From assembly GCF_002300555.2 (NCBI RefSeq), contig NZ_NTHN02000006.1:1-64000 (forward strand): a stretch of 64,000 nucleotides of DNA, given 5' to 3'. The translations under genes were made by a program, and so were the position numbers. Under the pieces are notes generated by a model, which worked only from the letters and a program-made list of their open reading frames with translations, did no database searches and was not told the DNA's origin. Positions 1 to 22,331 of this stretch are shown here, in pieces. Position 1 is the stretch's first letter. The number at the start of each line of letters is the position of its first letter. The DNA comes from Alloyangia mangrovi. Lineage in GTDB: Bacteria; Pseudomonadota; Alphaproteobacteria; Rhodobacterales; Rhodobacteraceae.

Positions 1-819
1 GTGTCCGGACGCCCTCCGCCCCCCCAGCCTCAGCCGGACGAGCCCGCCGCGACCCCGCGCCACCTGATCACCCGCCGCGCCACGCCGCAGGCCGAGGCGC
101 TGTGGGACCGGCTGCAGGTCTTCGAGATCGACACCAGCCATCTCGAGCGCAACCGCATCATCACCGCGAGCCGCGAGGATCCGGCCCATGCCGCCTTCGA
201 CGTGCTGCGCACCCGGCTGACCCAGGCGCTGGCCGAGAACGGCTGGACCCGCGTCGGCATCACATCGCCCAGCAAGGGCTGCGGCAAGACCTTCACCGCC
301 GCCAACCTCGCCATCTCGATGTCCCGGCAGGAGGGGCTGCGGGCGCTTCTGATGGACCTCGACCTGCGCAACCCCTCGCTGCACAAGGTCATGGGGGTGC
401 GCGCACCCGGTGCAATGGGAGCCCTGCTGCGCGGCGTGATCCCGCCCGAGGCGCATCTGATGCGCATGGGCGAGAACCGCATCCACGCCGGGCACAACAT
501 CGCCTTCGGCTTCAACGAGGTGGTCGAGCCCTATGCCGCCGAGCTGCTCAACGCGCCCGCCACCGCCGAGGTGATCACCTCGATCGAGGCGCGGCTGCAG
601 CCCGACGTGATGCTCTTCGACCTGCCGCCGGCGCTTTACTACGACGATGTCCTGGCCTTCCGGCCGCAGATCGACGGTGTGCTCATGGTGGTCGGCGGCG
701 GGCTGACCACCGAACGCGAGATCCGCGAGGTCGAGCGCCGCCTCGGCACCGAAACCCCGTTGCTCGGCATGGTGCTGAACAAGGCCGAGGGCACCAACCT
801 CAAGAAATACCAATACTGA
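1..819 (+). CDS. CpsD/CapB-type (BY-kinase) tyrosine kinase of exopolysaccharide export
   Basis: Cytoplasmic ATPase/autokinase domain that in this family partners a Wzz-type membrane protein to control polysaccharide polymerisation and export. Visible: Walker A SPSKGCGKTFTAANLA (about residues 90-105), Walker A' LMDLDLRNP (about 117-125) and Walker B DVMLFDLPP (about 202-210). The C-terminus has only two tyrosines (KKYQY) instead of a long Tyr cluster. The frame is open from the first base, a GTG, so the true start may lie upstream. A C7 run at 19-25 sits in the proline-rich N-terminus, and runs of this length break frames elsewhere in the window, so the first ~8 residues are doubtful. The convergent neighbour is the matching chain-length protein. 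Confidence 0.85.
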   Translation: MSGRPPPPQPQPDEPAATPRHLITRRATPQAEALWDRLQVFEIDTSHLERNRIITASREDPAHAAFDVLRTRLTQALAENGWTRVGITSPSKGCGKTFTAANLAISMSRQEGLRALLMDLDLRNPSLHKVMGVRAPGAMGALLRGVIPPEAHLMRMGENRIHAGHNIAFGFNEVVEPYAAELLNAPATAEVITSIEARLQPDVMLFDLPPALYYDDVLAFRPQIDGVLMVVGGGLTTEREIREVERRLGTETPLLGMVLNKAEGTNLKKYQY

Positions 820-820
820 G

Positions 821-846
821 AAAGGCGGGCCCCTGGCCCGCCTTTT
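821..846 (+). terminator. Rho-independent terminator after the BY-kinase gene
   Basis: A 10-bp GC stem (822-831 with 835-844) has a 3-base loop, is preceded by AAA and followed by TT. It lies between convergent genes and could serve both strands. Confidence 0.7.
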
Positions 847-880
847 CACATCGGCTCGCCCTATCGCCGGGTCTGGCCGC

Positions 881-2191
881 CTAGGCGCCGACCCGCGGCA
901 GGAAGCGCTCGATCATCGGCAGCCGGTCGCCAAGCAGGCGCAGCACCCCGAAAAGCACCGCCCCCACCGCCAGCACCAGCGCGGCGATGCCGAGCCCCTT
1001 GCCGCGGCGGTCGCGGCGGCTCTTGACCGGCGGGATCGCCACAATCGGCTGGATCCCGAGCACCCGCTCCATCTGCGCCGCGCTGCGCAGCGCCGGGTTC
1101 ATCAGCTCGGCGGCAAAGGCCGAGATCAGCCCGGCGATCAGGCTCGCCACGGCGCCCACGGCCACCAGCTTGCGGCGGCTCTGCGACGCCGAGACCTCGG
1201 GCACCAGCGCCGTCTCGAGCACCTCGAAGCGGTCCGACTGCTGCCGGTCCTCGAGCATCTGGCCCATCTCGGCATCCGCCTTGCGGCGGGTGATCACGCT
1301 GTACTGGTCCTGAAGCTGGGTGCGCTCGCGCTCGAGCCCGCTGAGCTCGCGCTCGACCTCGGGGGCGCGGCGAATGGTGTCCTCGATGCCGTCGATGCGC
1401 ATGGCAATCAGCTGCTTCTGCTCCTGAAGCAGCGCAAGCTGCCGGGCCTGCACGTCTTCGCGCTGGCGGGCGGAATTGGCCTGCAGCGCGACGATGTCCC
1501 GGTCAAGCTGCAGCTTGTTGTCCTCGAGCGTGCCGAGCTGGTCGCGCATGGCGGTGAGCCCGGAGGGCAGCGCCTCGGAGTTCTGCTTCTTGAACTCGGC
1601 GATACGGCCATCCATCGCCTCGATCTCGGTTTCGACCCGCGCTTCCTCGGCCTCGAAGAAGGCCAGCGCATCGCGCGCCCGCGTCTCGCTGCGGCTGCGC
1701 GACATCTCGATCACCGAGTGCATGAGCTCGTTGGCCACGTCCGCGGCCTTCTGCGGATCGTCGAGCCGCACCGTGATCATCAGCCCCGAGGGCTGGTTCT
1801 GCGGCGCGTAGACATTCGGATTGGCGCGGATTTCCTGGATCGAGGCGGACTCGCGCATACGGAAGACGCGCTCGTTCATCGGCATCTCGGGAACGGTCAC
1901 GAAGAGCCCGTGCTCCTGCATGATGCGCACGAGGTTGTCGCGCGACATGATCCGCTGCTCGATGAGCTGCACCCGGCGCGAGGCGGTCTCGGCCGCGCTG
2001 GTGGCGCTGGTCGGGTTGGGCGCGACCTGCGCCTCCTCGATCTGGACCACCGCCGTCGCCTCGTAGAGCTTGGGCTGGTTCAGCGCGAAGAACACGGCGA
2101 TCGCCGTGCCGACCACGAAGGTCAGGACGATCAGACCGAAACGGCGGCGCACTGCGGAGAGCACCTCGGAAAACGACTGTAACTGGTTCAC
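881..2191 (-). CDS. Wzz/GumC-type polysaccharide chain-length determinant protein
   Basis: Inner-membrane polysaccharide co-polymerase. It has an N-terminal transmembrane segment (about residues 15-37, GLIVLTFVVGTAIAVFFAL), a long periplasmic region with coiled coil (about 160-330, rich in E/R/Q heptads such as LSGLERERTQLQDQY), and a second membrane helix near the C-terminus (about 398-415). A further hydrophobic segment near 345-362 (LVAVGAVASLIAGLISAFAA) is also present. GTG at 2191 is preferred because GGGAG lies 7 bases upstream; an ATG 20 codons earlier lacks a site. It probably works with the BY-kinase encoded convergently. About 436 aa. Confidence 0.85.
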   Translation of the reverse strand: MNQLQSFSEVLSAVRRRFGLIVLTFVVGTAIAVFFALNQPKLYEATAVVQIEEAQVAPNPTSATSAAETASRRVQLIEQRIMSRDNLVRIMQEHGLFVTVPEMPMNERVFRMRESASIQEIRANPNVYAPQNQPSGLMITVRLDDPQKAADVANELMHSVIEMSRSRSETRARDALAFFEAEEARVETEIEAMDGRIAEFKKQNSEALPSGLTAMRDQLGTLEDNKLQLDRDIVALQANSARQREDVQARQLALLQEQKQLIAMRIDGIEDTIRRAPEVERELSGLERERTQLQDQYSVITRRKADAEMGQMLEDRQQSDRFEVLETALVPEVSASQSRRKLVAVGAVASLIAGLISAFAAELMNPALRSAAQMERVLGIQPIVAIPPVKSRRDRRGKGLGIAALVLAVGAVLFGVLRLLGDRLPMIERFLPRVGA

Positions 2192-2412
2192 AACAAAACT
2201 CCCGCAATGGCCCCCAATGCGATCGGAAAGCGGCACCCCTGCCCCGGCCAATTTGGGGTTGGGACCGGAAGCAGGCGCGCCGCTTTCATGACAAAATCTA
2301 GCAATTTTGCCCGGTTTACGCCATGTTTATACGGAGCCATTCGGGAAACACTTCGTGTCCGATGTGGGGATCGCGAACACATTTGCGCCATAAATCCGGG
2401 ATTTTTCGCCTA

Positions 2413-3069
2413 TCAGCCGTGACGCAAGGCGCAAACCGACAAAATAAGGTCAAAATCCGCGAGCTGAAGCATGGGCAGACCCGCCCCCGCGCCAAGCCCC
2501 AATTCCGCCACCATTCGCATCGCGCCAAGCGGCAGGTGTGATTCCATCGCCTCGAAACCGAAGAGCGCCCCGGTCAGCGGGTACTGCGCCTTGTAAGCTG
2601 CCTCCTTGGCGCTGAAGATTCGCACCCCGGCGCGCGAAAAGGGCATGGGCGAGAGCCGCGCCAGCTCGGTCACGCTGGCAATGCTGCCGAGCAGTTCGGC
2701 ACGCATCGGCCGGTCGAGTTCAAGATCGATCCCCAGGCCGCGCCAATCCTGCGCGCGCGCCGCCATGGCAAGGCAGAGCCCCTCGGTGTGGGTGATGCTG
2801 GCGACGACCCCCTCGGGCCAGACCGGCGCGCGATCCGCGCCCTTGGGAATGGCAACGCCCGGCAGGCCGAGCTGGCGCAGCGCCGCGCGGGCCGCCAGCC
2901 GCCCGCCGGCAAATTCCGCCTGCCGCTTGGGGACCGCGCGAGAAATGCAGTCGCGTTCCTCGGGGAAGAGCTCAGAGAGGTCCTGCACCGGCTCGGACAC
3001 GGCCCAGACAATCCCCTTCGGCAGCGCGGCCCTGCACAGCAGGTCCCGGAGTTCCTCGGGCCGGGCCAT
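2413..3069 (-). CDS. 4'-phosphopantetheinyl transferase (Sfp/EntD type)
   Basis: Transfers phosphopantetheine from CoA to the serine of carrier-protein domains, here presumably the PCP and ACP of the two megasynthases upstream in the same operon. Diagnostic motifs are GIDLE (about residue 112, Mg-binding) and FSAKEAAYKAQYP (about 152-164), with the arginine-rich N-terminal CoA-binding part (FAGGRLAARAALRQLG). At 218 aa it has EntD-like size. The ATG follows the NRPS stop by one base (TGAGATG), so translation is almost certainly coupled. It is the last gene of the operon. Confidence 0.92.
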   Translation of the reverse strand: MARPEELRDLLCRAALPKGIVWAVSEPVQDLSELFPEERDCISRAVPKRQAEFAGGRLAARAALRQLGLPGVAIPKGADRAPVWPEGVVASITHTEGLCLAMAARAQDWRGLGIDLELDRPMRAELLGSIASVTELARLSPMPFSRAGVRIFSAKEAAYKAQYPLTGALFGFEAMESHLPLGAMRMVAELGLGAGAGLPMLQLADFDLILSVCALRHG

Positions 3070-3070
3070 C

Positions 3071-7762
<4,692 letters not shown>

Positions 7763-7763
<1 letters not shown>

Positions 7764-8776
7764 CACAGTCTCTCCGCGTTCGTCTCCGCGCTGCCTGTCC
7801 CCGCGGGGACGGCACGCTCCGGCGAGGGCCGGAGCAGGGCGCGGAGGTCATGGGATATCAGGTCGTGCAGGAAATGCGCGGGATCGGCGGCGGGCTTGCG
7901 CTGGATCACCCGGCGCAGCCGCCAGAGCAGGCCGCCGCAGGCATGCGACAGCGTCGCCAGCGCGGCGTAGCACCGCCCGTGGGTCTTGGCAAAGTAGTGC
8001 CAGCGGCTGTCGAGCCAGAAGGTGGGGATGCGGGTCCAGCGCTTCATCCCGGTCGAGACCGAGCCGATGTGCATGACATCGCTGCCGCGCACGTAATGTG
8101 TCTGGTGCCCGGCGCGTGCGGCGCGGTGGCAGAGCTCGGTTTCCTCGAAGTAGAGGAAGAATGTCTCGTCAAAGAGGCCGATCTCGTCCAGCACCGCCCG
8201 CCGCAGCATCAGCGAGGCACCGGCCAGCCAGTCGACGCGCTGCGTCCCCGCGGGGACGGGCATCGGCACCGCCTTGCGCTTGAGCAGCCGCGAGACCGGG
8301 CCGAAACGGGCGGCGCCTTCAAATTCCGACGCGATGGAGGGGAAGCGGAAGGCGGTCATATGCGCCTCGCCGTCCTGGCCATGGAGATAGCTGCCGGCAA
8401 GGCCCGCCTCGGAGTGCGCCTCGAGATGCGCGACCAGCGCGCGGATCGCACCCGGCGCGGGGAAGGCGTCGGAGTTCAGCAGGTAGACGTAGTCGGGGCA
8501 GCTGCCGTCCGACATGCCGGCGCGGATGCCGATGTTGTTGCCCGCGCCGAAGCCGCCGTTGTGGTCCGAGCCGATCAGCCGGATCGGCGCGCCCTTCGCC
8601 CAGTCCTCGGCCGCGAGCGCTGCCTTCATCTCTTCGTAGGATCCGTCGCCGCTGGCGTTGTCGACGATGACGAGCTCGGCATCGAGTCCCTGCATAGCGC
8701 GAAGCGCCGCCTGCACCGAGCGCAGGGTCATCTCCGCGGTGCGGTAGTTGAGCGATATGACGAGCACGCGCGGCAT
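7763..8776 (-). CDS. GT2-family glycosyltransferase in the PKS/NRPS operon
   Basis: GT-A fold enzyme resembling rhamnosyltransferase-type family 2 proteins. The N-terminus VLVISLNYRTAEMTLRSVQ is the nucleotide-sugar Rossmann start; VIVDNASGDGS and LLNSDAF (DXD-like) follow, then GASLMLRR and the FFLYFEETELCHRA acceptor region. The ATG at 8776 starts 4 bases after the PKS stop, and its own stop overlaps the NRPS start, so it is an integral gene of the biosynthetic operon. It may glycosylate the operon's product or an intermediate of the neighbouring polysaccharide pathway; the sequence does not decide which. About 337 aa. Confidence 0.87.
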
Positions 8777-8780
8777 CGGT

Positions 8781-11700
8781 CTACTCCGCGGCACGGGCAG
8801 TGAACGGCGGCGCCTCGCCCGGCGCCGGAGCCACCTCGGCCTCGGCAATGGCCTGCCGCATCAGCGCCGCCAGCACCCGCACGTTGGGTTCGAGCACCAT
8901 GGAGTCGTGATCGCCCGGCACCTCGTGCACCTCGACCCCGGGCACATATTGGCCCCAGTCGTTGTCGGCCAGCACGTAGGCGCGCTCCGAGTTCACCATG
9001 CGACCGCCACCGACCTGCCACTTGCCGACCAGCGGCGGGCGGTAGAGCACCAGGCGCCCATCCCACGGGCGGACATTGTACCGCGCCACGGCCTGCAGGA
9101 AGGCGGCCTCGATCTCGGCATTGTGGAAGGCGTGTTCGGCGCCGGTGACCGCGCTGGCGCGGCGCTTGGCGATCTCCCAGCGCAGGCGGTTGCGGGCCCA
9201 GACCAGCGGATAGAGCGGACCCTTGTCCCTGGCCTCATGCCACTGGATACGCAGCCGGTCACCGCGTTCGAGCGGGCGGCGCGTCGGCAGCGGCGTGTCG
9301 AGCAGCACGCAGAGCGCGACCTCTTCGCCCATGGCCCCGAGCTGGCGGGCGATCTCGTAGGCGGTGATCCCTCCGCCCGAGAAGCCGCCGAGCATGTAGG
9401 GGCCCTCGGGCTGCACCTGCCGCATCTCGGCGATGTAATCGGCGGCGGCAGCCTCGATGGTCGCATGCGGCGCTTCGCCGCCATAGAGCCCCTTGGCCTG
9501 CAGCCCGTAGCAACGCCGGTCGGCGCCCAGCAGATGTGCGAGGTGTCGCAGGTTGAGCACGTTGCCGAACATGCCCGCCACGAGGAAGAACGGCCGGCGC
9601 GGCCCACCCTCGCCGTCGTGCATCGGCACAACGTGGGTGAAGCGGCGCTCGGGCGTCTTCGGCGCTTCGCTCGCGGCTTCACCCGCATGCCCCGTGCGCT
9701 CGGCGATGAGCGCGGCGCAGCGGCGGATGGTCGGCGCCTCGAAGAGTACCGAGATCGGGAAATCGACGCGGAAGGCCTTGCGCACCATGGCAAAGAGCCG
9801 CACGGCGATCAGGCTGTGCCCGCCGAGATCGAAGAAGCTGTCCTCGGCCCCCACGCTCTGCACCCCCAGAAGCTCTTGCCAGAAGCCTGCCAGGGTGCGT
9901 TCGATCTCGCCCTCGGGGGCGACGTAGTCACTGTCGAGCTGCGGCCGCTCGAAACTCTGCCCCTCGGGTTTCTCGAGGCTCATGGCGGCACTCTGCCGGG
10001 TGAGCTGGTCGAGATCCACGGACGAGACCACCACCTGCGGCAGGCCGAGCCGCAGCGCACGAGCAAAGGCCTCGATGCCTTCCTCGGGCAGGATGCCCTG
10101 CGACAGGCTGTCGGCGAGCCGTTCCTCGGCGGGCGAGAGTGGCTGCGCGGCACCGTCGTCCTCGGTCTCCAGCTCGGCGGCGGTGAGCCGCGGCGCGGCC
10201 TGCAGCTGCTCGGGCGTGTCGAGACGGCGCAGTGTGAAGCCGTCGATCTCGACCAGCACGCTGCCATCGGGCGCGCAGAGGGTGACGTCGAAGCTGGCGG
10301 ATCCGCTCTCGGCCTGGGTGTCCACGGCAGTGCGAACCCAACTCACGATCCGCCCCGGCAGCGGCGCGTGTACGCGGACTCGGGAATAGGAAACCGGCAC
10401 CCAGAGGTGGGTCGGAGCCCAGCCCGCGATCAGCGCCATCGCCCAGCCAGTGGCAATGTCGCACAGCGCCGGGTGCAGCAGGCAGCCGTCCCGCGCCGCC
10501 TCGGCCGGCAGCGAGAGATCGGCGATCCCCTCGCCCTGCCCCAGCGCCGCGGCGTCGAGCACCTTCCAGCGCGGGCCGAAGGCGAGCTGCTCTTCCTGTG
10601 CGGCGGCAAGCTTGCCGCCGCGCGGCGCGCGCTCGGGGGCGGCGCAGCGGGCGCGGAGTGCTTTCAGGTCAAGCCGAGCAGGGCGCGGCAGCGGCAGGAG
10701 AGAGAGCGTGGCCTGCGCGGTGAGCGCAAAGCCGTGGCGTCCGTTCAGCGTGGCATCTCCCAGCACCTCGAAGCCGTATCCCTCGTCCCGGCGCGTGAGG
10801 CGCAGGCGGAGATCGCGGGGCCTCTCGTCGGTCACCCTCAGCGGGCGCAGGAAGGTGAGATCGCGGATCTCGAAGCGCTGCTCCTCGCGCTGCGCCTTCA
10901 GGGCATGGGCGGCGAGGGTCAGGTAGCCGGTGCCGGGCAGCAGCGCGTCGCCGGCGCGGGTGCGGTGCTCGTCGATGATCCAGTCAGCCGTCGAGAGCGT
11001 GCTGGTGAAGAGACGGTTGCCCCGTGCGTCGAACGTTGCCTCGCCGAGCAGCGGCAGGCCGGTGGGCTCCACCGGTTGCGCGGGTTGATCGCAGCTGCGC
11101 GCGGCGACGGCCTCGGCGGCCATGCCGACCTCGTTCCAGATGCCCCAGTTGATCGCCGTGACCTGCGTCTGCCCGCCGGCGCGGGCGCGGGCGAAGGCGT
11201 TGAGGAACTCGTTGGCGGCGACGTAATCCACCTGCCCCGCCGGGGCGGTGACGGTGGAGGAAGACGAGAAGAGCGCGATCCAGTCCGTGGACCCGTCGGG
11301 GAAGACCTCGCCCAGTACCTGCGTGCCGTGGATCTTCGGGGTGAAGACAGCCTCGACCGAGGCCGGTGTCTTGGTGAGCAGCGGCGCGTCGTCGATGACG
11401 CCCGCGCCGTGGATCACCCCGGTGATGCGGCCGAAGCGCGCTTCGGCTTCGTCCCGTGCGGCCTGAAGCTGGGCGCGGTTGCAGACATCGGCGGCGATCA
11501 CGAGGATCTCGGCCCCGGCCTCTTCCAGCGCCAGCACGGCACGGATGCGGCGCGCGATGGGGTCCTGCGGCGCGTGGCGGGCAAGGTATCCGGGCCAGTC
11601 CCCGCGCGCAGGCAGCGCGCTGCGGGCGACGAGGATCAGCTTTGCGCCATGCCGGGCGAAGGCCATGCCGAGCGTCAGGCCGATGCCTCCGAAGCCGCCG

Positions 11701-14700
11701 GTGAGCAGGTAGGTCCCCTGCCCCGGCGGCAGTGCGGCTTCGGGCAGCGGCACGGAGGCCATGATGCATTCATAGCGGCGGCCGCCGCGCAGGGCGGCAC
11801 TCGCATCCCCGGGCTCGGCGAGCAGGTCCTCGAGCACGAGATCGGTGAGCCGGGCGAAGGCCTGCGCGCGGGTGGCCTCGGCCTTGCGGCGGGTAAAAAG
11901 GGTGCCAGTGGCGGGCCCGGGCAGGACAAGGTCGAGCGTTTCGACACGAACACCGGGGAATTCGCGCGGGATGACCCGGGCGGGACCGGCGATGGTGGAC
12001 TTGGCGGGATGCACCAGCGGCTCGCCCTGCACCTGCGCGGCGCCGGTGGTCAACACGGTTATCTGCAGCGGGCGCGGCAAGGACTCCTCGGCCATGGCCT
12101 GCGCGAGGAAGAGCAGCGAGTAGAAGCCTTGCTCCTGCACCCGATGGAAGAAGCTGGAGCCGGGGCGGTGCCCCTCGCCCTCGGTGACCAGCCAGAAATG
12201 CGCAACTCGGGTGGGCACATGCCCGCGCAGGGCCAGATCCTGCAGCAGCAGGTCATAGCCCTCGCGGCCGCGTTCGGGCGGCAGGACATACGAGCTCTCC
12301 GAGAGGCGGATGAAGGCGTCGCCGGGGCGCACCTCGATCACCTCGTGCCCGGCCGCACTGAGCCGCGCCGCGCAGCGGTCGGCGAGCCCGGCCTCGTCCA
12401 TGAACATAAGCCAGACCTGCGGTTCGGCTTCCGAGAGCGCCTCGGTGACGTCCAGCGCGGCCTTGGCGGTGCGCGGGCGCCAGACCGGCTTCCAGCCCCA
12501 GCTGCTCAGGTCGTCGCTGCGCAGGAGGTGCTTCGGCGCGGGTTCGGCCTGCTTGCCGGGCGCGATGAAATAGGGTGCGCGCTGGAAGGCGTAGGTCGGC
12601 AGCACCACGCGGTTGCGGCGGGCCCCGCCCCAGACCTGCGCCCAGTCGATCTCGGCCCCGAGCGCCCAGAGACGGCCCAGAACCTCGAACATGTAGCGAT
12701 CGTCGGCGATCTCTTCGTCGGGGTGGCGCAGCGAACTCAGCACCTGCTGACCCGGCACCGCGGGGTGCTGGCCGGCGAGCGAGGAGAGCGCCTTGCCCGG
12801 GCCGACCTCGAGGAAGATGCGGCTCTGCTGCTCGGCAATCGTTGCCACGCAGTCGGCGAAATGGACGGTGCCGCGCAGATGCTCGACCCAGTAGTCGGGG
12901 CTTGTGGCCTCGTCGTCGGTCATCCAGCTGCCGCTGCGGTTCGAGGTCAGCGGAATGCGCGGCGGGCTGAGATCGATGGAGCGCAGGTAGGCGCGGAACT
13001 GCTCGAGGATCGGAGCGAGCATGCGGCTGTGCGCGGCGACGTCGATGGCGATACGCTGGCAGTCGATGCCGTCCGATATCAGTCTCTGTTCAAGCGAATT
13101 CAGCGCCTCTGCAGGCCCCGAGGCCACCGAGAGCTCGGGCGCATTGACCGCGCCGAGGTCGAGATCGTCACCAAGGTAGCCCTGCAGCGTCTCGGCGGGC
13201 AGGCTGACCGAGAGCATGCCGCCCGCGGGCACCGTGTCGAAGAGCCGTCCGCGCAGGTGCACGAGGCCGATGCAATCCTCGAAGCTCATCACACCCGCGA
13301 TGCAGGCGGCGGTGTTCTCGCCCATGGAATGGCCCGCAAGGGCGGCGGGCTCGATGCCCCAGCTCATCCAGAGCTTCGCCAGCGCCACCTCGGTCATCAG
13401 GATCAGCGGCAGTTGCAGGGAGGGCCGCTTCAAGGCCTCGTCGGCGGCGCGCTTCGCCTCGGGCGCGGGCAGCCAGAGGGCGCGGATGTCCTCGTCGGTG
13501 ATCTCGGCCAGCGCGGTCAGCCCGCGGTCCATCCAGTCGGCGAAAACAGGCTCTGTTTCATAGAGATCGCGTGCCATGCCGGCGTATTGCGCGCCGCCTC
13601 CGGGGAACAGGAAGGCGATGTCGGGCCGGTCGAGCGCGCCGTGGGTATGCACCCGGCGGGGGGGTGTTTTCCTCCAGCAGGCGCGCGGCCTCGTCATGGC
13701 TCGCGGCCACCACCACGCGGCGTTTCTCGAAGGCGCGGCGTCCCTCCTTGAGGGTGAAAGCTATGTCAGCCAGCGGCTGCTCGGGGTGGGCGCGCAGATG
13801 GGCGGCGAGGCGCTTCGCGTTCTCCTCCAGCGCCGCCTTGCTGCGGCCCGAGAGGGTGAGGATCTGGAACGGCCAGTCGCTCTGCTCCGAGGCTGGGCGC
13901 AGGGGCGCCTCCTGCAGCACGACATGGGCGTTGGTGCCGCCGACGCCAAGCGAGTTGACCCCGGCGCGGCGCGGGTGATCGCCGCGCGCCCACGCCGTCA
14001 GGGTGTCATTGACCACAAAGGGCGAGGTCTCGAAATCGATGGCGGGATTGGGTTTCTCGTAGCCCAGCGAGGGCGGCATCTGCCCGTGGTGCAGCGCCAG
14101 CGAGGTCTTGATCAGGCTCGCAACCCCGGCGGCAGTGTCGAGGTGGCCAATGTTGGTCTTCACCGAACCGATGCGGCAATGCCCTTGTTTAGAGCCGCTT
14201 GCCGAGAAGGCCTGGGTCAGCGCCGCGACCTCGATGGGATCGCCGAGATAGGTGCCGGTGCCGTGGCATTCGACATAGTCGATGCTGTCCGAGCCGACGC
14301 CCGCCACGGCCTGTGCCTCGGCGATGGCCTGCGCCTGGCCGTCGACCGAAGGCGCGAGATAGCCCGCCTTGCCCGCGCCGTCGTTATTGATCGCCGAGCC
14401 CTTGATGACCGCCCAGATGTGATCGCCGTCGGCAATGGCATCCCCGAGGCGGCGCAGCACCACGACCCCGGCGCCGGAGCCGAAGACCGTGCCCTGCGCG
14501 CGATGGTCGAAGGCGTGGCATTCCCCGTCGGGCGAGAGGATCTCGTTCTCGCGGTACAGATAGCCGCGCTTCTGCGGCAGCTCGATGGTCACCCCGCCCG
14601 CCAGCGCCATGTCGCATTCCCCTCCCAGAAGCGCCTGAACGGCGAAATGGGTGGCGACGAGCGAGGTCGAACAGGCGGTCTGCACGTTGACCGACGGCCC

Positions 14701-15234
14701 GTGCAGGTCGAGCACATAGCTCAGCCGGGTGGTCAGGAAGTCCTTGTCGTTGCCGGTATGGCGCAGCAGGAACAGGCCCGTATTGTCGACGAGATCGGGG
14801 TTCGAGCAGAGGTTGACGTAGAAATAGCTGCCCATGCCGACGCCGCCGAAGACGCCGATGGCGCCGTCGAAGTTCTGGGGCACGTGGCCGGCGGTCTCGA
14901 GCGCCTCCCAGGCGGTCTCGAGGAACTGCCGGTGCTGCGGGTCCATGATCGCCGCGTCCTTTGGGGCGAAGCCGAAGAACTCGGCGTCGAACATCTCGAA
15001 GCCGTCCAGCGGCGCGCCGAAGGGCACGTAGTCGCGGTGACGCAGCAGGCCCGGGTCTTCGCCGGCGGCGCGCAGCTCGTCCTCGGTGAAGCGGCGGATG
15101 GCGCGGCGGCCTTCGCGCAGGTTCGTCCAGTAAGTGGCGATATCGGCGGCGCCGGGAAGATGCGCGGCCATGCCGACAATGGCGATGTCCGTCTCGGCGA
15201 TACCCGTCTCGGCAATGTCACGTTGACTGTCCAA
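8781..15234 (-). CDS. Type I modular polyketide synthase KS-AT-KR-DH-ACP-TE; one frameshift at a G7 run
   Basis: About 2150 aa after correction. KS: TACSTSL (Cys near 187), HGTGT and NIGH. AT: FPGGGAQY and GHSMGE (Ser near 635), with VAAHS at the extender-specificity site, so malonyl versus methylmalonyl is unclear. KR: GGFGGIG near 1174 plus SSSST...VDYVAANEF. DH: His and LPGTG near 1426 and HPALCD near 1590. ACP: FFDLGGHSLIAV (Ser near 1805). Type I thioesterase: GGFSGGG near 1951, DTPLP and GDHDSM. The frame breaks at 13658-13664, between KS and AT; six bases instead of seven restore it. A TTG at 15234 with GAGGAAGG 4 bases upstream fits better than the ATG at 15270. First gene of the operon; the TE implies product release here. 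Confidence 0.9.
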
Positions 15235-15271
15235 GAAGCCTTCCTCACTCGTACAAACCCGCGACCTCATG

Positions 15272-15294
15272 CTCCGTAAAGACCGATTACGGAG
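15272..15294. promoter_or_regulatory. Perfect inverted repeat upstream of the PKS operon
   Basis: CTCCGTAA (15272-15279) and TTACGGAG (15287-15294) are exact inverted copies separated by 7 bases. They lie just upstream of the PKS start in a 168-base gap between flippase and PKS. This could be an operator or a 5'-UTR hairpin. A second, weaker stem (ACTGTCC/GGACAGT, 15357-15378) lies farther upstream. Confidence 0.4.
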
Positions 15295-15438
15295 AAAATT
15301 GGGCGCAATTCGGCATGACGCACCGTCGCGGGAAACAAAGCGGGGCAGGCCTCGGCACTGTCCGCCGCGAAGGACAGTATCAGGCGAGCCCCCGGCTGTC
15401 TCGGGTGGCCGTGGCCGCAGGCGCAGGGGCGGCGGGAC

Positions 15439-16755
15439 TCACCAGCCCTGGGCGCTCAGCGCGGTGACGGCGGACCAGTTGAGCGTGATGGAAAGCGCCG
15501 CGAGCGCCGCGCCGAAAAGCGCGAAGCACAGGTCGTGCAGCGGGTCCCAGACGCCCATGCGTCGCGCCAGCCAGACCACGACCGGATAGGCCAGCGCGAA
15601 GGCCGCACCGTAGCCGAGCAGCGCGCCGATCAGCCCGTGGGTTTCCAGCCCGACGAGGATACAGCCCACCATCAGCAGCGCCCGCGCCAGCGCCAGCACG
15701 AAGAAGCTGCGGCTGTCGCCCGCCGCCAGTGCCGCCTGGTCGTAGGTCTGTACGATGATCTGCGGCATCTGCATGCAGGCGATGAGCACCGTCACCGCCC
15801 CGGCGGCGAGGTAGCGCTCGTCGTACATCAGCTCGACCAGCGCGTGGCCGCAGACGGCGAAGCTGGCGACCAGCACCAGAAGCGCGCCGGTCACCGAGAA
15901 GCGCATCTTGCGCAGGCGCAGGAAGTTCTGGCGGCTTTCGCGCGGCGGGCTCTCGCGGTAGATCGGGATCAGCACCTTGCGCGTCACTATGCCGCCCAGC
16001 AACATCGGGAAGGAGGCGAGGAAGTAGCCGATGTTGTAGACCCCGAAGGCGTCGAGGCTGAGGTACTTGCCGATCAGGATCTTGTCGCCCTGGCTGAAGA
16101 AGAAGCCGCAGACGGTCGACAGGAAGATCCACTTGCCGAAGTTCACCAGTTCGTGCCGCGCCTCGGGCTCCATGCGGAAGCGGTTGCGGCCCCCGGCGAG
16201 CAGCAGCGAGTTGGCGATCACCTCGAAGAGGCTGCTGATCAGCCCCGAGAGCACCAGCGACCAGACCGAGCCGGTGGCCCATGCCAGCAGCACCGCGCTG
16301 CCGACGCCGATGGTCTGCGTGGCCAGCTCGAGCAGGGTGACCCTGCCGAGCAGCAGGTGGCGGTTGGCGCTGTCCATGCGGGTCGGGCGAAAGCCGACGA
16401 TGAACAGCGACAGCCCCGCCACGGGCAGCAGGTGCAAGAGCTGCGGCTCGGCGTAGAAGAGCGACATCGGCCAGGCCAGAACGCAGGCACTGAGCCAGAG
16501 GCCGATGCCGCGCAGCACCTGGATGGTCCAGGCGGTGTCGAGGAAATCGCGGTCGTCGCCGCGCTTGCTCTGCAAGATCGCCGGGGTGACGCCCACGTCC
16601 GAGAACTGCATGAGCCCCATCAGGAAGACCGAGACCAGCGCCATGAGGCCGAAAGCCTCGGGGAAGAGCAGCCGGGTGAGGATCAGGTTGCTGCCGAGCC
16701 GCAGCGCCTGGGAAAAGCCGAAGCTGCCCACGGTCAGCAGCGACGAGCGCAGCAC
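15439..16755 (-). CDS. Polysaccharide flippase (Wzx / MATE-like MOP family)
   Basis: Multi-pass inner-membrane protein of about 438 aa with the typical start SFGFSQALRLGSNLILTRLLFPEAFGLMALVSVF and about a dozen hydrophobic segments. This family flips undecaprenyl-linked oligosaccharides across the membrane. GTG at 16755 opens the frame and no good ribosome-binding site is visible; it may be coupled to the upstream glycosyltransferase, which ends 46 bases earlier on the same strand. It sits between two polysaccharide glycosyltransferases and the PKS operon, so it is probably the exporter of this locus. Confidence 0.87.
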   Translation of the reverse strand: MLRSSLLTVGSFGFSQALRLGSNLILTRLLFPEAFGLMALVSVFLMGLMQFSDVGVTPAILQSKRGDDRDFLDTAWTIQVLRGIGLWLSACVLAWPMSLFYAEPQLLHLLPVAGLSLFIVGFRPTRMDSANRHLLLGRVTLLELATQTIGVGSAVLLAWATGSVWSLVLSGLISSLFEVIANSLLLAGGRNRFRMEPEARHELVNFGKWIFLSTVCGFFFSQGDKILIGKYLSLDAFGVYNIGYFLASFPMLLGGIVTRKVLIPIYRESPPRESRQNFLRLRKMRFSVTGALLVLVASFAVCGHALVELMYDERYLAAGAVTVLIACMQMPQIIVQTYDQAALAAGDSRSFFVLALARALLMVGCILVGLETHGLIGALLGYGAAFALAYPVVVWLARRMGVWDPLHDLCFALFGAALAALSITLNWSAVTALSAQGW

Positions 16756-16801
16756 CCGGGCGCGAGCGAGGCGCCGGAAAAGCGTCGGATCAGGGCGGTT
16801 G

Positions 16802-17668
16802 TCACCGGCTGCGGCTCCACTCCGGGCGGACCTGCGGCGTCAGCCGGACCAGCAGCGCGACGCCGCTGTAGACGGCAAAGCCGATCGGGTCGCGCAGCGC
16901 CATGCGCAGCTTCCCGATGGCCGAGAGCGGCAGCTTGTCGTCATTGCCCAGGAGCCGCGGGTAGAGCTTGCCGACCTCCGCCACCCCGGCGTCCTGCCTC
17001 CGGCGCACGCGGACCAGCGCGGCCAGCCCCTCGGCGATGGGCCATTCGTAATGGGCGGGCACCGAGGCGCGCTCGTCGGGGGTGAAGCTGAGCCGCACGA
17101 AGGTATCGTCCGAGATGATGTCGGGAAATTCCGGCCAGCGGGCACGGCCCTCGGCGTTGACCGCGAAGACCCCGCAGCCCGGCACACCGTCCGACATGAA
17201 GGGCACCTGCCGCCAGGTCCGGGCATAGGCGCGGGCGGCCCAGCCATGGGCGGTGATCCGCAGCCGTCCGCTGGCATAGCGCGCGCCGGGCCGGGACAGG
17301 GCGGCGTGGAGCTGCGCCAGCAGCGCCTTGCTGACCGTCACGTCGGCGTCGAGGTAGATGCGGATGCCCGACCCTGCCTCGGCGTCCCCGGCGTTGAGCG
17401 CGGCGAGCTTGCCGCCCTCTGCACGCTCGATCACCCGCAGGCTCCAGCCACGCGCGGCGAAACCCTCGACGAAGCCGCGGGCGCGCTCGGCGGTGTCGTC
17501 GATGCAGCCATTGGCTATGACGATGACCTCGGGCGCGGGGCTGTCCCCGGGCCAGTCCGAGGCCAGCAGGGCCTTAAGACACGCGCCGATCAGCGCGCTC
17601 TCGTTGCAAGCTGGCAGGATCACCGACACCGCGGGACTGCCAGGAAACTGATACTCGTCAGATGCCAT
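16802..17668 (-). CDS. GT2-family glycosyltransferase
   Basis: The N-terminal GT-A domain starts VSVILPACNESALIGACLKAL and has VIVIANGCIDDTA and YLDADVTVS (DXD-type metal/nucleotide-binding motif). A C-terminal basic and hydrophobic tail (GFAVYSGVALLVRLTPQ) may anchor it to the membrane. ATG at 17668 gives MASDEYQF and directly precedes the conserved domain; a start 7 codons earlier has no advantage. Same strand as the flippase, so likely one transcription unit. It is divergent from the GT4 gene across a 152-base promoter region. Confidence 0.82.
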   Translation of the reverse strand: MASDEYQFPGSPAVSVILPACNESALIGACLKALLASDWPGDSPAPEVIVIANGCIDDTAERARGFVEGFAARGWSLRVIERAEGGKLAALNAGDAEAGSGIRIYLDADVTVSKALLAQLHAALSRPGARYASGRLRITAHGWAARAYARTWRQVPFMSDGVPGCGVFAVNAEGRARWPEFPDIISDDTFVRLSFTPDERASVPAHYEWPIAEGLAALVRVRRRQDAGVAEVGKLYPRLLGNDDKLPLSAIGKLRMALRDPIGFAVYSGVALLVRLTPQVRPEWSRSR

Positions 17669-17820
17669 GATCCGTACCAAGGACGACACACATGCCTATG
17701 TCCTGCACCAGGACGGGGTAGCTTTGCCAGCAAACTATGGCCAAAGAATGATTTGAGGGAGTTTGTGGTTTAATTGTCGACGGCCGTCCCGGCCTGCCGT
17801 TCGACGCGTGGGGGGTTCCG

Positions 17821-19029
17821 GTGTCGCAAAACCTTCGGATCGGTTATCTCGTCCCCCAGTTCCCGGGGCAGACGCATATCTTCTTCTGGCGCGAGGTGCA
17901 GGCGCTCGAGGCGATGGGCCACGAGGTGCACCTTCTGTCGACCCGCGTGCCGCCCGCTGGGCTGATCGCGCACAGCTGGTCCAAGGAAGCCATCGCGCGC
18001 ACCACCTATCTTGGCGAGATTCGCCCGCTGGCCGCGGCCACCACGCTGGCCCGTCTGCTGCCGCGGGGGCTGGCGCTGGACCTCCTGCGCGAGGGGCCGG
18101 GCTTTGCCCGGGACACGGCCCTGACCCTCTCGGCCGCCGAGGCGCTGCGGGACTACACGCGCGAGCATCAGCTCGACCACGTCCACGTGCACAGCTGCGC
18201 CCGCGCCGCCCTGGTCGCCAATCTCGCGCAGAGACTCGGCGGCGCACCCTATTCGCTGACCCTGCACGGGCCGCTGTCGGATTACGGCCCCGGCCAGCGG
18301 GTGAAATGGCGGGAGGCGACCTTTGCCACGGTGATCACCCGCAAGCTGACGGATGAGCTGCATGCGGCGCTGGGGGACAACCTGCCGCCGCGCATGGTGA
18401 TCCGTCCGATGGGCGTCGACACCGAGGTGCTGCGCCGCGAGGCCCCCTATGTGCCACCCGAAAAGGGCCGGCCGGTGCGGCTCTTTTCCTGCGGTCGGTT
18501 GAACGTGGTGAAGGGCCACCAGGACCTGATGTCGGCGGTGCGCCAGCTGCTCGACCAGGGCGTCGACGTGCGGCTCGAGATCGCCGGCGAGGACGACGCA
18601 GGCGGCAGCGGCTACCGCGCCGAGCTCGAAGCGCATCTTCGCAAGCTGCGGCTGCGCGACCACGTGAAGCTCCTCGGGGCAATCGACGCGGGGGCGGTGC
18701 GCGACAAGCTGCTCTCGGCGCATGTCTTCGTGCTGGCCTCGTGGCACGAGCCGCTCGGCGTCGCCTACATGGAGGCGATGGCCTGCGGCCTGCCGGTGAT
18801 CGGCACCGACGCGGGCGGGGTGCGCGAGCTGATCGACGACGGGCATTGCGGCAAGCTGGTGCCGCCGAAGGACCCGACGGCGCTGGCAAGGGCGATCCGC
18901 GATCTGGCACAGAATCCCGAGACCGCGCGGCGCCTTGGTGCGGCGGGACGGGAACGCGTCGAACGGGACTTCCGCGCCAGCCTCGGCGCCGAGACGCTGA
19001 TCGAGGAAATCCTGCGCGCGCGGCAATAG
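17821..19029 (+). CDS. GT4-family glycosyltransferase
   Basis: GT-B fold enzyme of about 402 aa. The N-terminal domain carries RIGYLVPQFPGQTHIFFWREVQALEAMGHEV. The C-terminal nucleotide-sugar domain carries FSCGRLNVVKGHQDL, the E-x7-E region ASWHEPLGVAYMEAMACGLPVIGTDAGGVREL, and PKDPTALARAI, typical of family 4 exopolysaccharide transferases. GTG at 17821 has a G6 stretch 5 bases upstream as ribosome-binding site. It stands alone on the plus strand, divergent from the other locus genes. Confidence 0.87.
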   Translation: MSQNLRIGYLVPQFPGQTHIFFWREVQALEAMGHEVHLLSTRVPPAGLIAHSWSKEAIARTTYLGEIRPLAAATTLARLLPRGLALDLLREGPGFARDTALTLSAAEALRDYTREHQLDHVHVHSCARAALVANLAQRLGGAPYSLTLHGPLSDYGPGQRVKWREATFATVITRKLTDELHAALGDNLPPRMVIRPMGVDTEVLRREAPYVPPEKGRPVRLFSCGRLNVVKGHQDLMSAVRQLLDQGVDVRLEIAGEDDAGGSGYRAELEAHLRKLRLRDHVKLLGAIDAGAVRDKLLSAHVFVLASWHEPLGVAYMEAMACGLPVIGTDAGGVRELIDDGHCGKLVPPKDPTALARAIRDLAQNPETARRLGAAGRERVERDFRASLGAETLIEEILRARQ

Positions 19030-19080: not shown

Positions 19081-22073
19081 TCATAGACCGGCGGTGGGAA
19101 GTTCTGTCTCGGGCGCCGCTTCGAAGCTCAGCAATTCAACGGCGAAGAGCGTCACCCGGCCCTTGCCCCCCTCAGCGACCAACCTTCCCGCCGCATCGCG
19201 CGAAAAGGTGTAATCCCCCTGCGCCCCCGGCAGCAGCGCCCGGTCCTCGCCCGCGCCGCCGTTGAGGTGATCGTCGCTGCCCTTGCCGATCAGCAGGTCG
19301 TCCCCGGTGCCGCCAAGCAGGACGTCGGGCCGCGCACTGCCCTCCAACGTCTCGCCCCCGGGTCCGGCGCGCAGCTGCAGCCCGTCGTCGAAGGTGCTGG
19401 CGGCGCGCTCTTCCCAGCCGGTCGGCGCCGAGGCATTGTAGCTCATCAGCATGTCCCAGCGCGGATTCGCGTCATCGAGATGCCGCAGCCCGCCCCAGCT
19501 GCCCCATTGCGAGGCCGGGGCGACATCGACGAAGGCATTGAAGAGCGTGCCCCCCCGCCGCGATCCAGCCACTCAGCAACTGCTCGTAGAGTTTGGCCAT
19601 CTCGGGGCTGTAGTTGAACTGTTCGAAAAAGTCGGTGAGCCTCTCGTCCTGCAGCCGCTCGGCCTGCGCCGCGACATGCGTGCCGCCCTCGTACATCACC
19701 AGCCGCAGCCCCGCGGTTTCAGCGACTTCGGCGTGATAGGGCAGGATCTCTCCGGTCAGCTCGGCGAGCGAGCCCTCCTGCAGCGCCAGAGCCACGGGCA
19801 GCATGGCAGCGTCGAAACGGTGGTCTTTGACATATTCGCGCAGGGCGACGCGGCGCAGCCCTTGTTCTTCGCCCTCCTCCTGCGCCTGCATCTCGGCGCG
19901 CGCGAGCCAGTCGTCTACCTGCCCCGCCATCTCCGCACCGCCGAGCTCGTAGCCGAAGTAACCCGCGACGGCGTAGGCGTCGAAGCTCTGCTGCGGCGCA
20001 CGGCCGAGCGCCAGATAGGCCAGCGGTGCGGTGAGGATCTGCTCCTCGAGCCCCGGCCAGCCGGTGTGGGTGGAGATCACCCGCACGATCCGCTCGTCTG
20101 CCTCCGCGCCGTAGACCTCGCTCCAGATGTCCATGATCTGCGCGGCGCGCAGCGCGTAGAACTGGATCCAACCCGACTCCGAACGCCCCCAGCGCGCCTC
20201 GGCCTGCTGCGTCGCCCATTGCGCCTGCGGGAAGATGAAGTTCCAGACCTCGTTGGAATATTCGACATAGGCCTTGAGCCCCGGATCAAGTCGCGCCTTC
20301 ACCAGCTCGGCGAAATGCCGGACGTAGTCGTCATCGGCCATATGCGGCAGGGTGAACCACGGGTCGACGCCGACTTCGTTGGCGAGGGCGATCATCACCT
20401 CGGGCGGCACACCCCAGGCGGTCCAGGTGGCATCGCTGAGGCGCGGGCGGTCGTCCCAGCGCTGCACCGGCGAGCCGTTGGTCATCATCCAGTCCATGAA
20501 GCGCAGGCTGCGCAGGTCGTGAATGCGCGCCAGCCAGGCGGGGTTGAACAGCGCCCCGGCCTCGAAGAGCGGCATCTGATCCTCGCGCACCACGTGGATG
20601 TCGCGGATCGGATCGTCGGGCTCCGTGGCCGAGATCGAGATGCCCACCGAGCCCTCGCCCGGCGCGTAGTCGAAGAGCGCCCGGCCCTCCTCCATGCGCA
20701 CGCGGCTGGCGCGGCCGGTGAGCCGCAGATCGCCCTTGCCCTGCCAGAGCACCACGTAGGTGCCGCGCAGGTGCTGCGCGGCCTCGGGCTGGTCGGTGAG
20801 CAGCAGCGCTTCCAGACGCTCGACCCCGTCGGGGATGCGCAGCGGCCAGCCGTCCTCGTCCAGCGCGCCGAGGGCGCGGAGCGCGTCGATTTCCACTCCT
20901 CCCCATTGCCCGGGCAGGTGGCCGATCCACGGCCGCGAGGATTTCATCAGGTCGATGAACGGGTGCTGGGTGGACCAGTCAGAGAGCCCGTTGAGCCCCA
21001 TGGCCAGCGCCGGGGCACCCTCGGGGCGGGCCTCGGCGTCGGGCAACGCCAGATCGGGGCGCGGTGGCAGGGGCGCGGTGGCGGCAGGCAGCGGCGGCGG
21101 GTTCAACCCCGGCTTCGACGGCGGCCTGCCCGGGCGCTTCCGGCTGCGGCGCGACCGCAGCCTGCTCGGGCAGCCCCTCCGAGACCACCTGCCAGACGTG
21201 TGCGGCGATCTGCGGGTAGGCGGCGGTGATCTCGCGGTCGATCTCGGGCGGCGGCGCATAGCCTTCGGGCGGCGGCGCGCCATAGAGCGCGCTGTAGGTT
21301 ACCATGGCGGCGAGGAAGTAGAGCGAAGGCGTCCCGTGCGGCGCATCGTCGACGTAGAGCGCTTGCGCCGGCACGTCCTGCAGCGGCCCGCCCTCCTCGA
21401 GCAGCTCCGACAGGACGCGCGCCACGGGAATCAGCTGCACCGGTTGGCCAGGGCGCGCCGCGCGCAGCTTGTTCAGCAGGTCGTCGTACCAGACCCCGTA
21501 GGCGCCGAGCGTGTAGTCGTGGTAGCGCCGCATCCCCCGCGCCGAGGGCGGGTAGTCGCCGGCAACCGAGGCCATGTCGGGCCAGCCCTCGTAGATCCAG
21601 AGCGGCGTGCCGGGGGCATGGCCCTCGACCCAGTCGGCAACGGTGAGAATCGCATCCATCGGGCTGGTGCCCGAGGGGTTGTTGCCGGGATAGGGCGCGT
21701 CGGAGACCTGGTACTGCAGAAAATTCGCCGGGGTGATCAGCACCGCGTCAAAGCCCGCATCGCCGAAGGCGCCGCGCCCCGGGTCCCAATGATTGCTCAC
21801 CCCGGGAATCGTCCAGTTCGGCTCGGGCGGCAGGTTGTCGGAAAAGTCGCGCAGAAAGCCCCATTGCCCGTCGAGGGCAAGCCGCGCGCCATCCGCCTGC
21901 GCCAACTGCGCGAGCCAGTAGGGCGTGTTGCTATGCGCCTCCTGCCCGAGGAAATGCACCAGAGAATTGCCGAAGACATAAACCTCGCGCTCGGGGCTGC
22001 CGCCCTCCTGCGCCAGCGACGCCAGGGGCCAGCCGGCAGCCAGCAATGCTGCCCTCAGAAAACGCCCGACCAT
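19081..22073 (-). CDS. Secreted SGNH-like / glycosidase-like / RTX protein; two frameshifts
   Basis: Read as one ~996-aa protein. A signal peptide (MVGRFLRAALLAAGWPLASLAQ) precedes an SGNH/GDSL-like region (VYVFGNSLVHFL near the start, YVDDAPHGTPSLYFLA later), then a Pro/Ala linker. A large glycoside-hydrolase-like region follows (WSTQHPFIDLMKSSRPW, VEYSNEVWNFIFPQ, VMYEGGTHV), and a C-terminus with RTX-type repeats (GGTGDDLLIGKGSDDHLNGGAGED). The frame breaks in the linker (about 21075-21105, +1) and at the C7 run 19550-19556 (+1). The middle part has no signal peptide of its own, which favours a single gene. ATG at 22073 has GGGGGA 5 bases upstream. RTX repeats suggest calcium binding and type I secretion. 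A polysaccharide-modifying role is inferred from location only. Confidence 0.72.
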
Positions 22074-22206
22074 GAAAATCCCCCGAAACAACCCTGAACC
22101 AAACGGCTTTCCCGAAACATATGGGCACGCGGCGCGGTCACTCAAGCGGCACGAGGGGCGTGCTGCACTGCGGCGTAACTTTCCGCGCCTCGTGCGGTAT
22201 TTGCGG

Positions 22207-22234
22207 TTTTCATTTCGCTGCCGCTGCGTATAGT
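22207..22234 (+). promoter_or_regulatory. Probable promoter of leuL-leuA
   Basis: TATAGT at 22229-22234 fits a sigma-70 -10 box, and TTTTCA at 22207-22212 is a weak -35 with 16-base spacing. Transcription would start near 22241-22242, at or next to the leader peptide ATG. Confidence 0.45.
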
Positions 22235-22241
22235 CGCGGCC

Positions 22242-22331
22242 ATGATGACCCTTGGCCATATCCCCGCTGCTGCACGTGCATTCCGCGCGCCGGTTGCGCT
22301 TGGCCTGCGTCTAGTCCTAATCCGCCTCTGA
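22242..22331 (+). CDS. leuL: leuA leader peptide (LeuL), 29 aa
   Basis: The ORF starts with two consecutive ATG codons and ends LGLRLVLIRL-stop, with six Leu in 29 residues and five in the last ten. Two use CTA, expected to be rare in such GC-rich DNA. It sits 87 bases upstream of leuA, and its stop lies inside an RNA stem, as in ribosome-mediated attenuation. No ribosome-binding site is visible, and the predicted transcription start coincides with the ATG, so translation may be leaderless. Leu-rich leaders before leuA are known in proteobacteria; this one is called here from sequence alone. Confidence 0.7.
   Translation: MMTLGHIPAAARAFRAPVALGLRLVLIRL

What the first reader, a model, noticed from the sequence alone, without database searches (positions are those of the whole stretch)
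2413..15234. Self-contained PKS - glycosyltransferase - NRPS - PPTase operon inside a polysaccharide locus
Seen: four same-strand genes with junctions of 4 bases, a 3-base overlap and 1 base. There is one PKS module with its own thioesterase, one NRPS module with no functional condensation domain, a GT2 enzyme between them, and a dedicated phosphopantetheinyl transferase. Inference: the NRPS primes the PKS with a formylated, oxidised aminoacyl unit. The KS elongates it, KR and DH reduce and dehydrate it, and the TE releases a small product that may be glycosylated. I know no characterised product with this gene set.
Basis: partly seen in the sequence, partly recalled or inferred. Interest (0 to 1): 0.82.

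Follow-up and report, generated by a model that had tools for sequence, protein, structure and literature searches.

The report
Assembly-line operon tied to surface polysaccharide
A four-gene enzyme assembly line, common in marine roseobacter-type bacteria and without a known product in the reports seen, probably turns glycine and malonate into a small acyl unit for one particular surface polysaccharide; in this assembly two of its genes have a broken reading frame.

Summary
The operon is real: PKS, GT2, NRPS and PPTase, minus strand, 2413-15270. It is the four-gene roseobacter PKS/NRPS cluster already in print, product unknown (PMC4337385, PMC5014874; passages). Here PKS and NRPS each carry one frame break (near 13,660 and 5,885). 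In 122 of 127 non-redundant related loci both are single reading frames, and both sides of each break look selected: the breaks are recent or artefacts.

New here: (1) The NRPS is formyltransferase, condensation-domain remnant, glycine-type adenylation domain with a monooxygenase inserted between a4 and a5, carrier. Its code is one residue from that printed for glycine-oxidising MOX modules. (2) Of 198 family genomes, 63 carry this locus's Wzz and all 63 carry the NRPS; a control gene shows no association.

Best reading: glycine is formylated, oxidised at C-alpha, extended once with malonate, reduced and dehydrated; the C4 acyl unit goes to a specific Wzx/Wzz-type polysaccharide. Co-inheritance is shown; chemistry and transfer are inferred. 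'Self-contained' is wrong.

The parts
13558..15270 (-). PKS, first reading-frame piece: ketosynthase and KS-AT linker
   Evidence: PF00109/PF02801; aligns to residues about 8-544 of relatives' single PKS ORF
8781..13697 (-). PKS, second reading-frame piece: AT-KR-DH-ACP-TE
   Evidence: Pfam AT, KR, PKS_DH_N/PS-DH, PP-binding, Thioesterase; frame switch near 13,660
7763..8776 (-). GT2 glycosyltransferase
   Evidence: PF00535; LLNSD motif; between PKS and NRPS in 121 of 127 loci
5637..7766 (-). NRPS, first reading-frame piece: formyltransferase, C-domain remnant, N-terminal part of A domain
3071..6088 (-). NRPS, second reading-frame piece: rest of A domain with inserted luciferase-like monooxygenase, carrier domain
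   Evidence: TIGR04020 453.8 bits, cut-off 244.45; PF00501, PP-binding; frame switch near 5,885; code DILQFGMIWK
2413..3069 (-). Sfp-type phosphopantetheinyl transferase
   Evidence: 4PPT_N and ACPS; GIDLE and FSAKEAAYK motifs
881..2251 (-). Wzz-type chain-length determinant
   Evidence: PF02706; 63 of 63 genomes with a match also carry the NRPS
1..819 (+). Wzc/ParA-type ATPase, at the contig start
   Evidence: PF01656; the matching relative in L034 is annotated CpsD/CapB tyrosine kinase
15439..16755 (-). Wzx-type flippase
   Evidence: PF13440/PF01943; 65 of 71 genomes with a match also carry the NRPS
16802..17689 (-). glycosyltransferase family 2
   Evidence: PF00535
17821..19029 (+). glycosyltransferase family 4
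   Evidence: PF00534

Best explanation
This is the conserved roseobacter PKS/NRPS cassette, working as part of one particular Wzx/Wzz-type surface-polysaccharide system. Proposed steps: the PPTase activates both carriers (inferred from family). The A domain loads glycine on the NRPS carrier (predicted from the code). The formyltransferase puts a formyl group on the glycyl nitrogen, and the monooxygenase embedded between a4 and a5 hydroxylates the alpha carbon. This leaves N-formyl-alpha-hydroxyglycyl thioester, or, if the carbinolamide falls apart as in myxothiazol, a glyoxylyl thioester (inferred by analogy). The KS takes that unit, the AT supplies malonate (malonate is assumed), KR reduces and DH dehydrates, giving a C4 enoyl acyl with a masked or free aldehyde at C4 (inferred). 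The TE releases it or hands it to a sugar or lipid-linked glycan, with the GT2 acting on the same repeat unit before Wzx exports it (inferred). Shown: domain content, kept catalytic residues in relatives, gene order, tight co-inheritance with Wzz/Wzx. In this assembly the PKS and NRPS frames are broken; intact copies exist in relatives.
For: Domains. FT Asn92, His94 and Asp130 invariant in 52 of 52; in the wider set Asn 132, His 131, Asp 131 of 132; FT fold by AF2 and PDB search. A-domain code: window DILQFGMIWK; of 132 relatives 33 read DILQLGMIWK and the rest differ mainly at position 299. PMC12283262 (passages) reports four MOX-bearing glycine A domains, all DILQLGMIWK. PMC10204066 (passage) describes the monooxygenase between a4 and a5 of glycine A domains of myxothiazol and melithiazol and the glyoxyl thioester left behind; PMC11342130 (passages) agrees on glycine and T-bound glyoxylate. 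A4-to-A5 distance is 474 residues in the window and 474 at the median of the 131 of 132 relatives measured. PKS active-site residues kept in 123 of 123. Polysaccharide link: 63 of 63 Wzz genomes carry the NRPS against 10 of 135 Wzz-less ones, p = 1.7e-41; Wzx 65 of 71 against 8 of 127, p = 8e-36; control Na:Ala symporter 24 of 61 against 49 of 137, p = 0.64. Polysaccharide genes (Wzz/Wzy class left out) in the fetched stretch of 115 of 127 loci.
Against: No step of the chemistry has been assayed. Nothing in the sequence shows transfer to the polysaccharide; the TE could simply hydrolyse. Co-occurrence partly reflects physical linkage (Wzx within 30 kb of the NRPS in 49 of 64 genomes compared) and shared ancestry, which the Fisher test ignores. 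8 of 73 NRPS genomes lack the Wzx match and 10 of 73 the Wzz match at the cut-offs used; 6 of 71 Wzx genomes lack the NRPS. The window's code differs at position 299 from the printed MOX code. KR stands before DH, not the usual modular order (recalled), so the programmed reduction is less certain. Two frame breaks may mean the pathway is off in this strain.
Confidence: 0.5

Rival explanations
1. The operon makes a small diffusible, glycosylated metabolite (signal or antibiotic); its place in the polysaccharide locus is mere genomic company.
For: PKS with its own TE; a GT2 in the operon; the roseobacter reports list the cluster under secondary metabolites. 6 of 127 loci have another gene order.
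Against: Among the ORFs scanned from base 1 to 19,029 the only export-type protein is the Wzx flippase and no regulator was matched. Tight co-occurrence with one Wzz (63 of 63) and not with an unrelated gene.
Confidence: 0.25
2. The PKS product is a lipid-like anchor or primer for the polysaccharide, as proposed for the rhizobial capsule gene rkpA (recalled, not checked here).
For: A PKS that recurs inside polysaccharide loci.
Against: One extension module with TE and an aminoacyl-type starter; no enoylreductase family among the Pfam matches. Nothing suggests a long saturated chain, although iterative use cannot be excluded.
Confidence: 0.1
3. The monooxygenase oxidises the glycine nitrogen, giving an N-formyl-N-hydroxy unit for metal binding.
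For: Formylation and oxidation occur together; hydroxamates are common in siderophores (recalled).
Against: The a4-a5 insertion and the glycine code match modules reported to hydroxylate C-alpha. No siderophore receptor family was matched among the window ORFs scanned.
Confidence: 0.08
4. In this strain the operon is a dying pseudogene: the two frame breaks are real and the pathway is off. (This concerns the strain only and can hold together with any reading above.)
For: Two breaks in about 13 kb. Two relatives, L071 and L099, also have PKS and NRPS that are broken or incomplete by an ORF-length test.
Against: dN/dS on both sides of both breaks is 0.11-0.23 against two close relatives, as in the intact neighbours (0.16-0.24). 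The PKS break lies at a run of C, a kind of place prone to sequencing or assembly error (recalled).
Confidence: 0.4

Closest known systems
Conserved roseobacter PKS/NRPS four-gene cluster (Martens et al., not seen; described in PMC4337385 and PMC5014874, passages seen)
   Same: Same four genes; loci from strains named in those papers (Leisingera sp. ANG-Vp L119, Leisingera sp. JC1 L129, Ruegeria sp. ANG-S4 L162) came up as relatives
   Different: Here the PKS and NRPS frames are broken. The passages seen do not report the polysaccharide co-inheritance or the glycine/MOX reading; the rest of those papers was not read
Glycine-MOX modules of the myxothiazol and melithiazol synthetases (PMC10204066, PMC11342130, PMC12283262; passages seen)
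   Same: Glycine-type A domain with a monooxygenase inserted between a4 and a5; code nearly identical
   Different: Those end the chain and take an upstream peptide; here the module starts the chain, a formyltransferase supplies the N-acyl group, there is no active C domain, and the carrier is followed by a PKS
Linear gramicidin LgrA formylating initiation module (PDB entries such as 6mfz)
   Same: Formyltransferase fused upstream of A-T at the chain start (LgrA architecture recalled)
   Different: In LgrA the FT adjoins the A domain and there is no monooxygenase (recalled); here a C-domain remnant and a monooxygenase are present
PuwE luciferase-like monooxygenase (PDB 6ket)
   Same: Same monooxygenase family (E 1.1e-92)
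   Different: Substrate and reaction of PuwE were not looked up; only the family match is used

Membership tests
Conserved roseobacter PKS/NRPS cluster | Four genes: NRPS, PKS, glycosyltransferase, PPTase together | tested here: met
   in relatives PKS>GT2>NRPS in 121 of 127 and PPTase next in 106 of 127
Conserved roseobacter PKS/NRPS cluster | Sequence relatives in strains of the published reports | tested here: met
   L119, L129, L162
Myxothiazol-type glycine-MOX module | Glycine code DILQLGMIWK | tested here: inconclusive
   Window DILQFGMIWK, 9 of 10 positions; exact in 33 of 132 relatives; code source PMC12283262 (passages)
Myxothiazol-type glycine-MOX module | Monooxygenase inserted between a4 and a5 | tested here: met
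   TIGR04020 at residues 206-556 of the 3071-6088 ORF, FDISV at 164 and YGPTE at about 638
Myxothiazol-type glycine-MOX module | Upstream peptide delivered through a C domain, and a following TE that hydrolyses glyoxylate | tested here: not met
   No HHxxxDG (0 of 132 relatives); no TE on the NRPS. So it is not filed as a member, only as working alike
LgrA-type formylating initiation module | FT domain with its conserved residues fused to A-T | tested here: met
   Asn/His/Asp invariant in 52 of 52; FT fold; that these are catalytic is recalled
LgrA-type formylating initiation module | FT directly followed by the A domain | tested here: not met
   About 200 residues lie between; the last 70 or so match the end of C domains (8hlk, E 1.3e-9)
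cis-AT type I PKS module | KS, AT, ACP with active-site residues | tested here: met
cis-AT type I PKS module | DH before KR | tested here: not met
   KR 661-856 precedes DH 882-1163; usual order recalled
Wzx/Wzy-dependent polysaccharide locus | Wzx, Wzz, glycosyltransferases | tested here: met
Wzx/Wzy-dependent polysaccharide locus | Wzy polymerase and priming sugar transferase | tested here: inconclusive
   Not matched among the window ORFs scanned; the contig starts at window base 1. Weak Wzy_C matches beside the cassette in three relatives (L033, L034, L036), below the cut-off

The most novel reading that the evidence does not exclude
The formyl group is sacrificial. It acylates glycine so that the embedded monooxygenase can split the carbinolamide, releasing formamide and leaving a glyoxylyl thioester, a polyketide starter made from glycine. 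One malonate extension with KR and DH gives a reactive 4-oxocrotonyl (or masked aldehyde) group, and the TE sets it on a roseobacter surface polysaccharide, where it could cross-link or bind amines on surfaces and algae.
Probability: 0.13. Interest if true: 0.85.

Novelty: new member of a known kind. Interest (0 to 1): 0.58.

Why it matters
PMC4337385 (passages) counts this cluster in 28 of 57 previously sequenced roseobacter genomes, and a relative of its NRPS is in 73 of 198 family genomes here. Its product is called unknown in the reports seen. Tying it to one polysaccharide system and naming a testable starter unit turns an orphan cluster into a concrete experiment on the polymer rather than on culture extracts. 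If the acyl reading is right, an assembly line decorates a bacterial polysaccharide in a family that lives in algal biofilms.

Tried and rejected
A unique, self-contained operon: rejected, the cassette is widespread. Two separate genes each as the normal state: rejected, relatives read through as one ORF. Programmed frameshifting: judged unlikely, because relatives have single frames; not tested further. RmlD as part of the same profile: only a weak association (60 of its 141 genomes carry the NRPS, p = 0.009).

An early query for the NRPS C-part was out of frame; its rows there are void and repeats the work in frame. The 'Wzz/PCP' class contained hypothetical proteins, two of which turned out to be weak Wzy_C matches and one had no match, so one search also counts without that class. 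Query categories that hit few loci (XrtD, export, O-antigen ligase, rml, GMC oxidoreductase) carry no weight.

The model tests the formyltransferase part. The 297-521 part was barely tested by the fold search, and its own prediction did not run to an end. The C-domain remnant therefore rests on sequence only: a PDB profile match of its last 70 or so residues and Condensation matches in 2 of 50 members, best E 0.037, none for the window's own member. A first count with the shorter pattern HHxxxD found 6 of 132 with a hit anywhere before the A3 motif; four of them were printed before the script stopped with an error. The full motif HHxxxDG between FT and A gives 0 of 132. In one search my pattern for the TE histidine hit another place; one search gives the right one. 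The window's code was not printed because of that error; one search gives it. MIBiG and antiSMASH were not available.

Ten paper searches gave no product for the cluster; the library holds only open-licence papers, and only passages of papers were read. Passages of PMC9765074, PMC12971057, PMC9396620 and PMC10608839 were seen but carry no claim here.
Full report
What is there. On the minus strand of a Rhodobacteraceae contig (G000:C136, window = its first 64 kb of 142.5 kb) lie a PKS (13558-15270 and 8781-13697), a GT2 (7763-8776), an NRPS (5637-7766 and 3071-6088) and a PPTase (2413-3069). The nearest named relatives of the NRPS first part are Alloyangia pacifica KcN7-14 (87 percent) and DSM 26894 (82 percent), then Salipiger species. 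The PKS reads KS-AT-KR-DH-ACP-TE and the NRPS FT - C remnant - A with inserted monooxygenase - T. Upstream are a Wzx and two glycosyltransferases; downstream are a Wzz and a Wzc/ParA-type ATPase. To the right the window turns mostly to housekeeping genes.

The breaks. The PKS and the NRPS are each in two overlapping frames. Single-ORF proteins of five relatives align across both places, switching frame near 13,660 and 5,885; the first place is a run of C on the coding strand. Against L101 and L102 dN/dS is 0.11-0.23 for every piece on both sides, as for the intact GT2, PPTase, Wzz and Wzx (0.16-0.24). The breaks are therefore recent or artefacts; which of the two cannot be told here.

Distribution. 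The first 529 residues of the NRPS match in 73 of 198 genomes of the family at E 1e-20, a few of these short or partial, and in 10 of 385 genomes of the class at 1e-40, of which 5 are in the same family, own genome included. I collected 146 loci (6 plasmid records, 60 stretches from family genomes, the best 80 of a named genome collection). They were picked by likeness to the NRPS, so they lean towards the same architecture. After removing 7 duplicates 139 remain, and 12 shorter than 19 kb are left out. Of the 127 kept: KS present in 127, order KS>GT2>NRPS in 121, PPTase next in 106, both big genes single ORFs in 122, the block Wzx>PKS>GT2>NRPS with Wzz and Wzc downstream in 53, and polysaccharide machinery in the stretch in 115 (121 if the Wzz/Wzy class is counted). 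The six other orders: PKS divergent in L037 (Aminobacter) and L038 (Shinella), no GT2 match between in L078 and L081, PKS downstream in L079 and L098. The five without two single ORFs: L071, L079, L098, L099, L138.

Known or not. PMC4337385 (passages) describes these four genes in 28 of 57 roseobacter genomes, crediting Martens et al., product not characterised; PMC5014874 (passages) repeats this for Leisingera sp. JC1. Loci of Leisingera sp. ANG-Vp, Leisingera sp. JC1 and Ruegeria sp. ANG-S4 are among the relatives. PMC4062626 (passages) lists PKS/NRPS tags PGA1_c04930 and c05350 for P. inhibens DSM 17395, and PMC10984933 (passages) gives the chromosomal exoY as c05320 in its methods and c05260 in its table, the same stretch of locus tags; the words polyketide and NRPS do not occur in its main text. 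I did not read the P. inhibens locus itself.

What the PKS does. KS Cys and both His, AT Ser, KR Ser/Tyr/Asn, DH His and Asp, ACP Ser, TE Ser and His are kept in 123 of 123 non-redundant relatives; neighbouring motif letters vary. The role of each motif is recalled. Direction NRPS to PKS follows from the missing C domain on the NRPS and the TE on the PKS. Solved structures close to the KS include hybrid NRPS/PKS proteins, though not as the top rows: weak support.

The polysaccharide link. In the same 198 genomes Wzz (881-2251) is matched in 63 at 1e-40 and all 63 have the NRPS; Wzx (15439-16755) in 71 at 1e-60, 65 with the NRPS. Wzx without NRPS: 6 genomes; NRPS without Wzx: 8; NRPS without Wzz: 10. 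A symporter from the same window is in 61 genomes, 24 with the NRPS, as expected by chance; RmlD in 141, 60 with the NRPS, a weak association. In 49 of the 64 other genomes with both, Wzx lies within 30 kb of the NRPS; in 2 it is over 1 Mb off on the same contig and in 13 on another contig, some of these perhaps other Wzx proteins. Shared descent and linkage are not removed by these tests.

Verdict. A member of a known orphan cluster, here with broken frames, reinterpreted as the acyl-making arm of one polysaccharide system. Steps shown: architecture, conservation, co-inheritance. Steps inferred: glycine loading, formylation, C-alpha oxidation, single extension, transfer to the polymer.

Noticed in passing
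G000 contig C55, 333-1568: A second NRPS with a condensation domain over the Pfam cut-off in the same genome, near a contig end.
   Followed up: no
window 28324-30889 (+): SIS-CBS protein (KdsD-like) followed by a DAHP_synth_1 protein (KdsA-like), perhaps Kdo pathway genes, near the polysaccharide block; the Kds names are recalled.
   Followed up: partly
window 19081-22259: Long overlapping ORFs on both strands; the four scanned (19472-21283, 20979-22259, 19451-21229, 20760-22097) have no Pfam match, and tblastx of the region found nothing in 13 related loci held; those loci may simply end before this region.
   Followed up: partly
L037, L038: In Aminobacter and Shinella the PKS is divergent from FT-NRPS-PPTase and no GT2 lies between, still near polysaccharide genes.
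   Followed up: partly
L071, L099: Two relatives in other genera in which both PKS and NRPS are broken or incomplete by ORF length, hinting at repeated loss.
   Followed up: no
L039, L040 and other rhizobial plasmid hits: Formyltransferase-bearing NRPS relatives on Sinorhizobium, Bradyrhizobium and Rhizobium plasmids; the two opened (L039, L040) lie beside other NRPS genes or transposases, not in this cassette.
   Followed up: no
L036, 1-2552: A Paracoccus locus carries another NRPS beside WecB/TagA and a flippase, close to the cassette.
   Followed up: no
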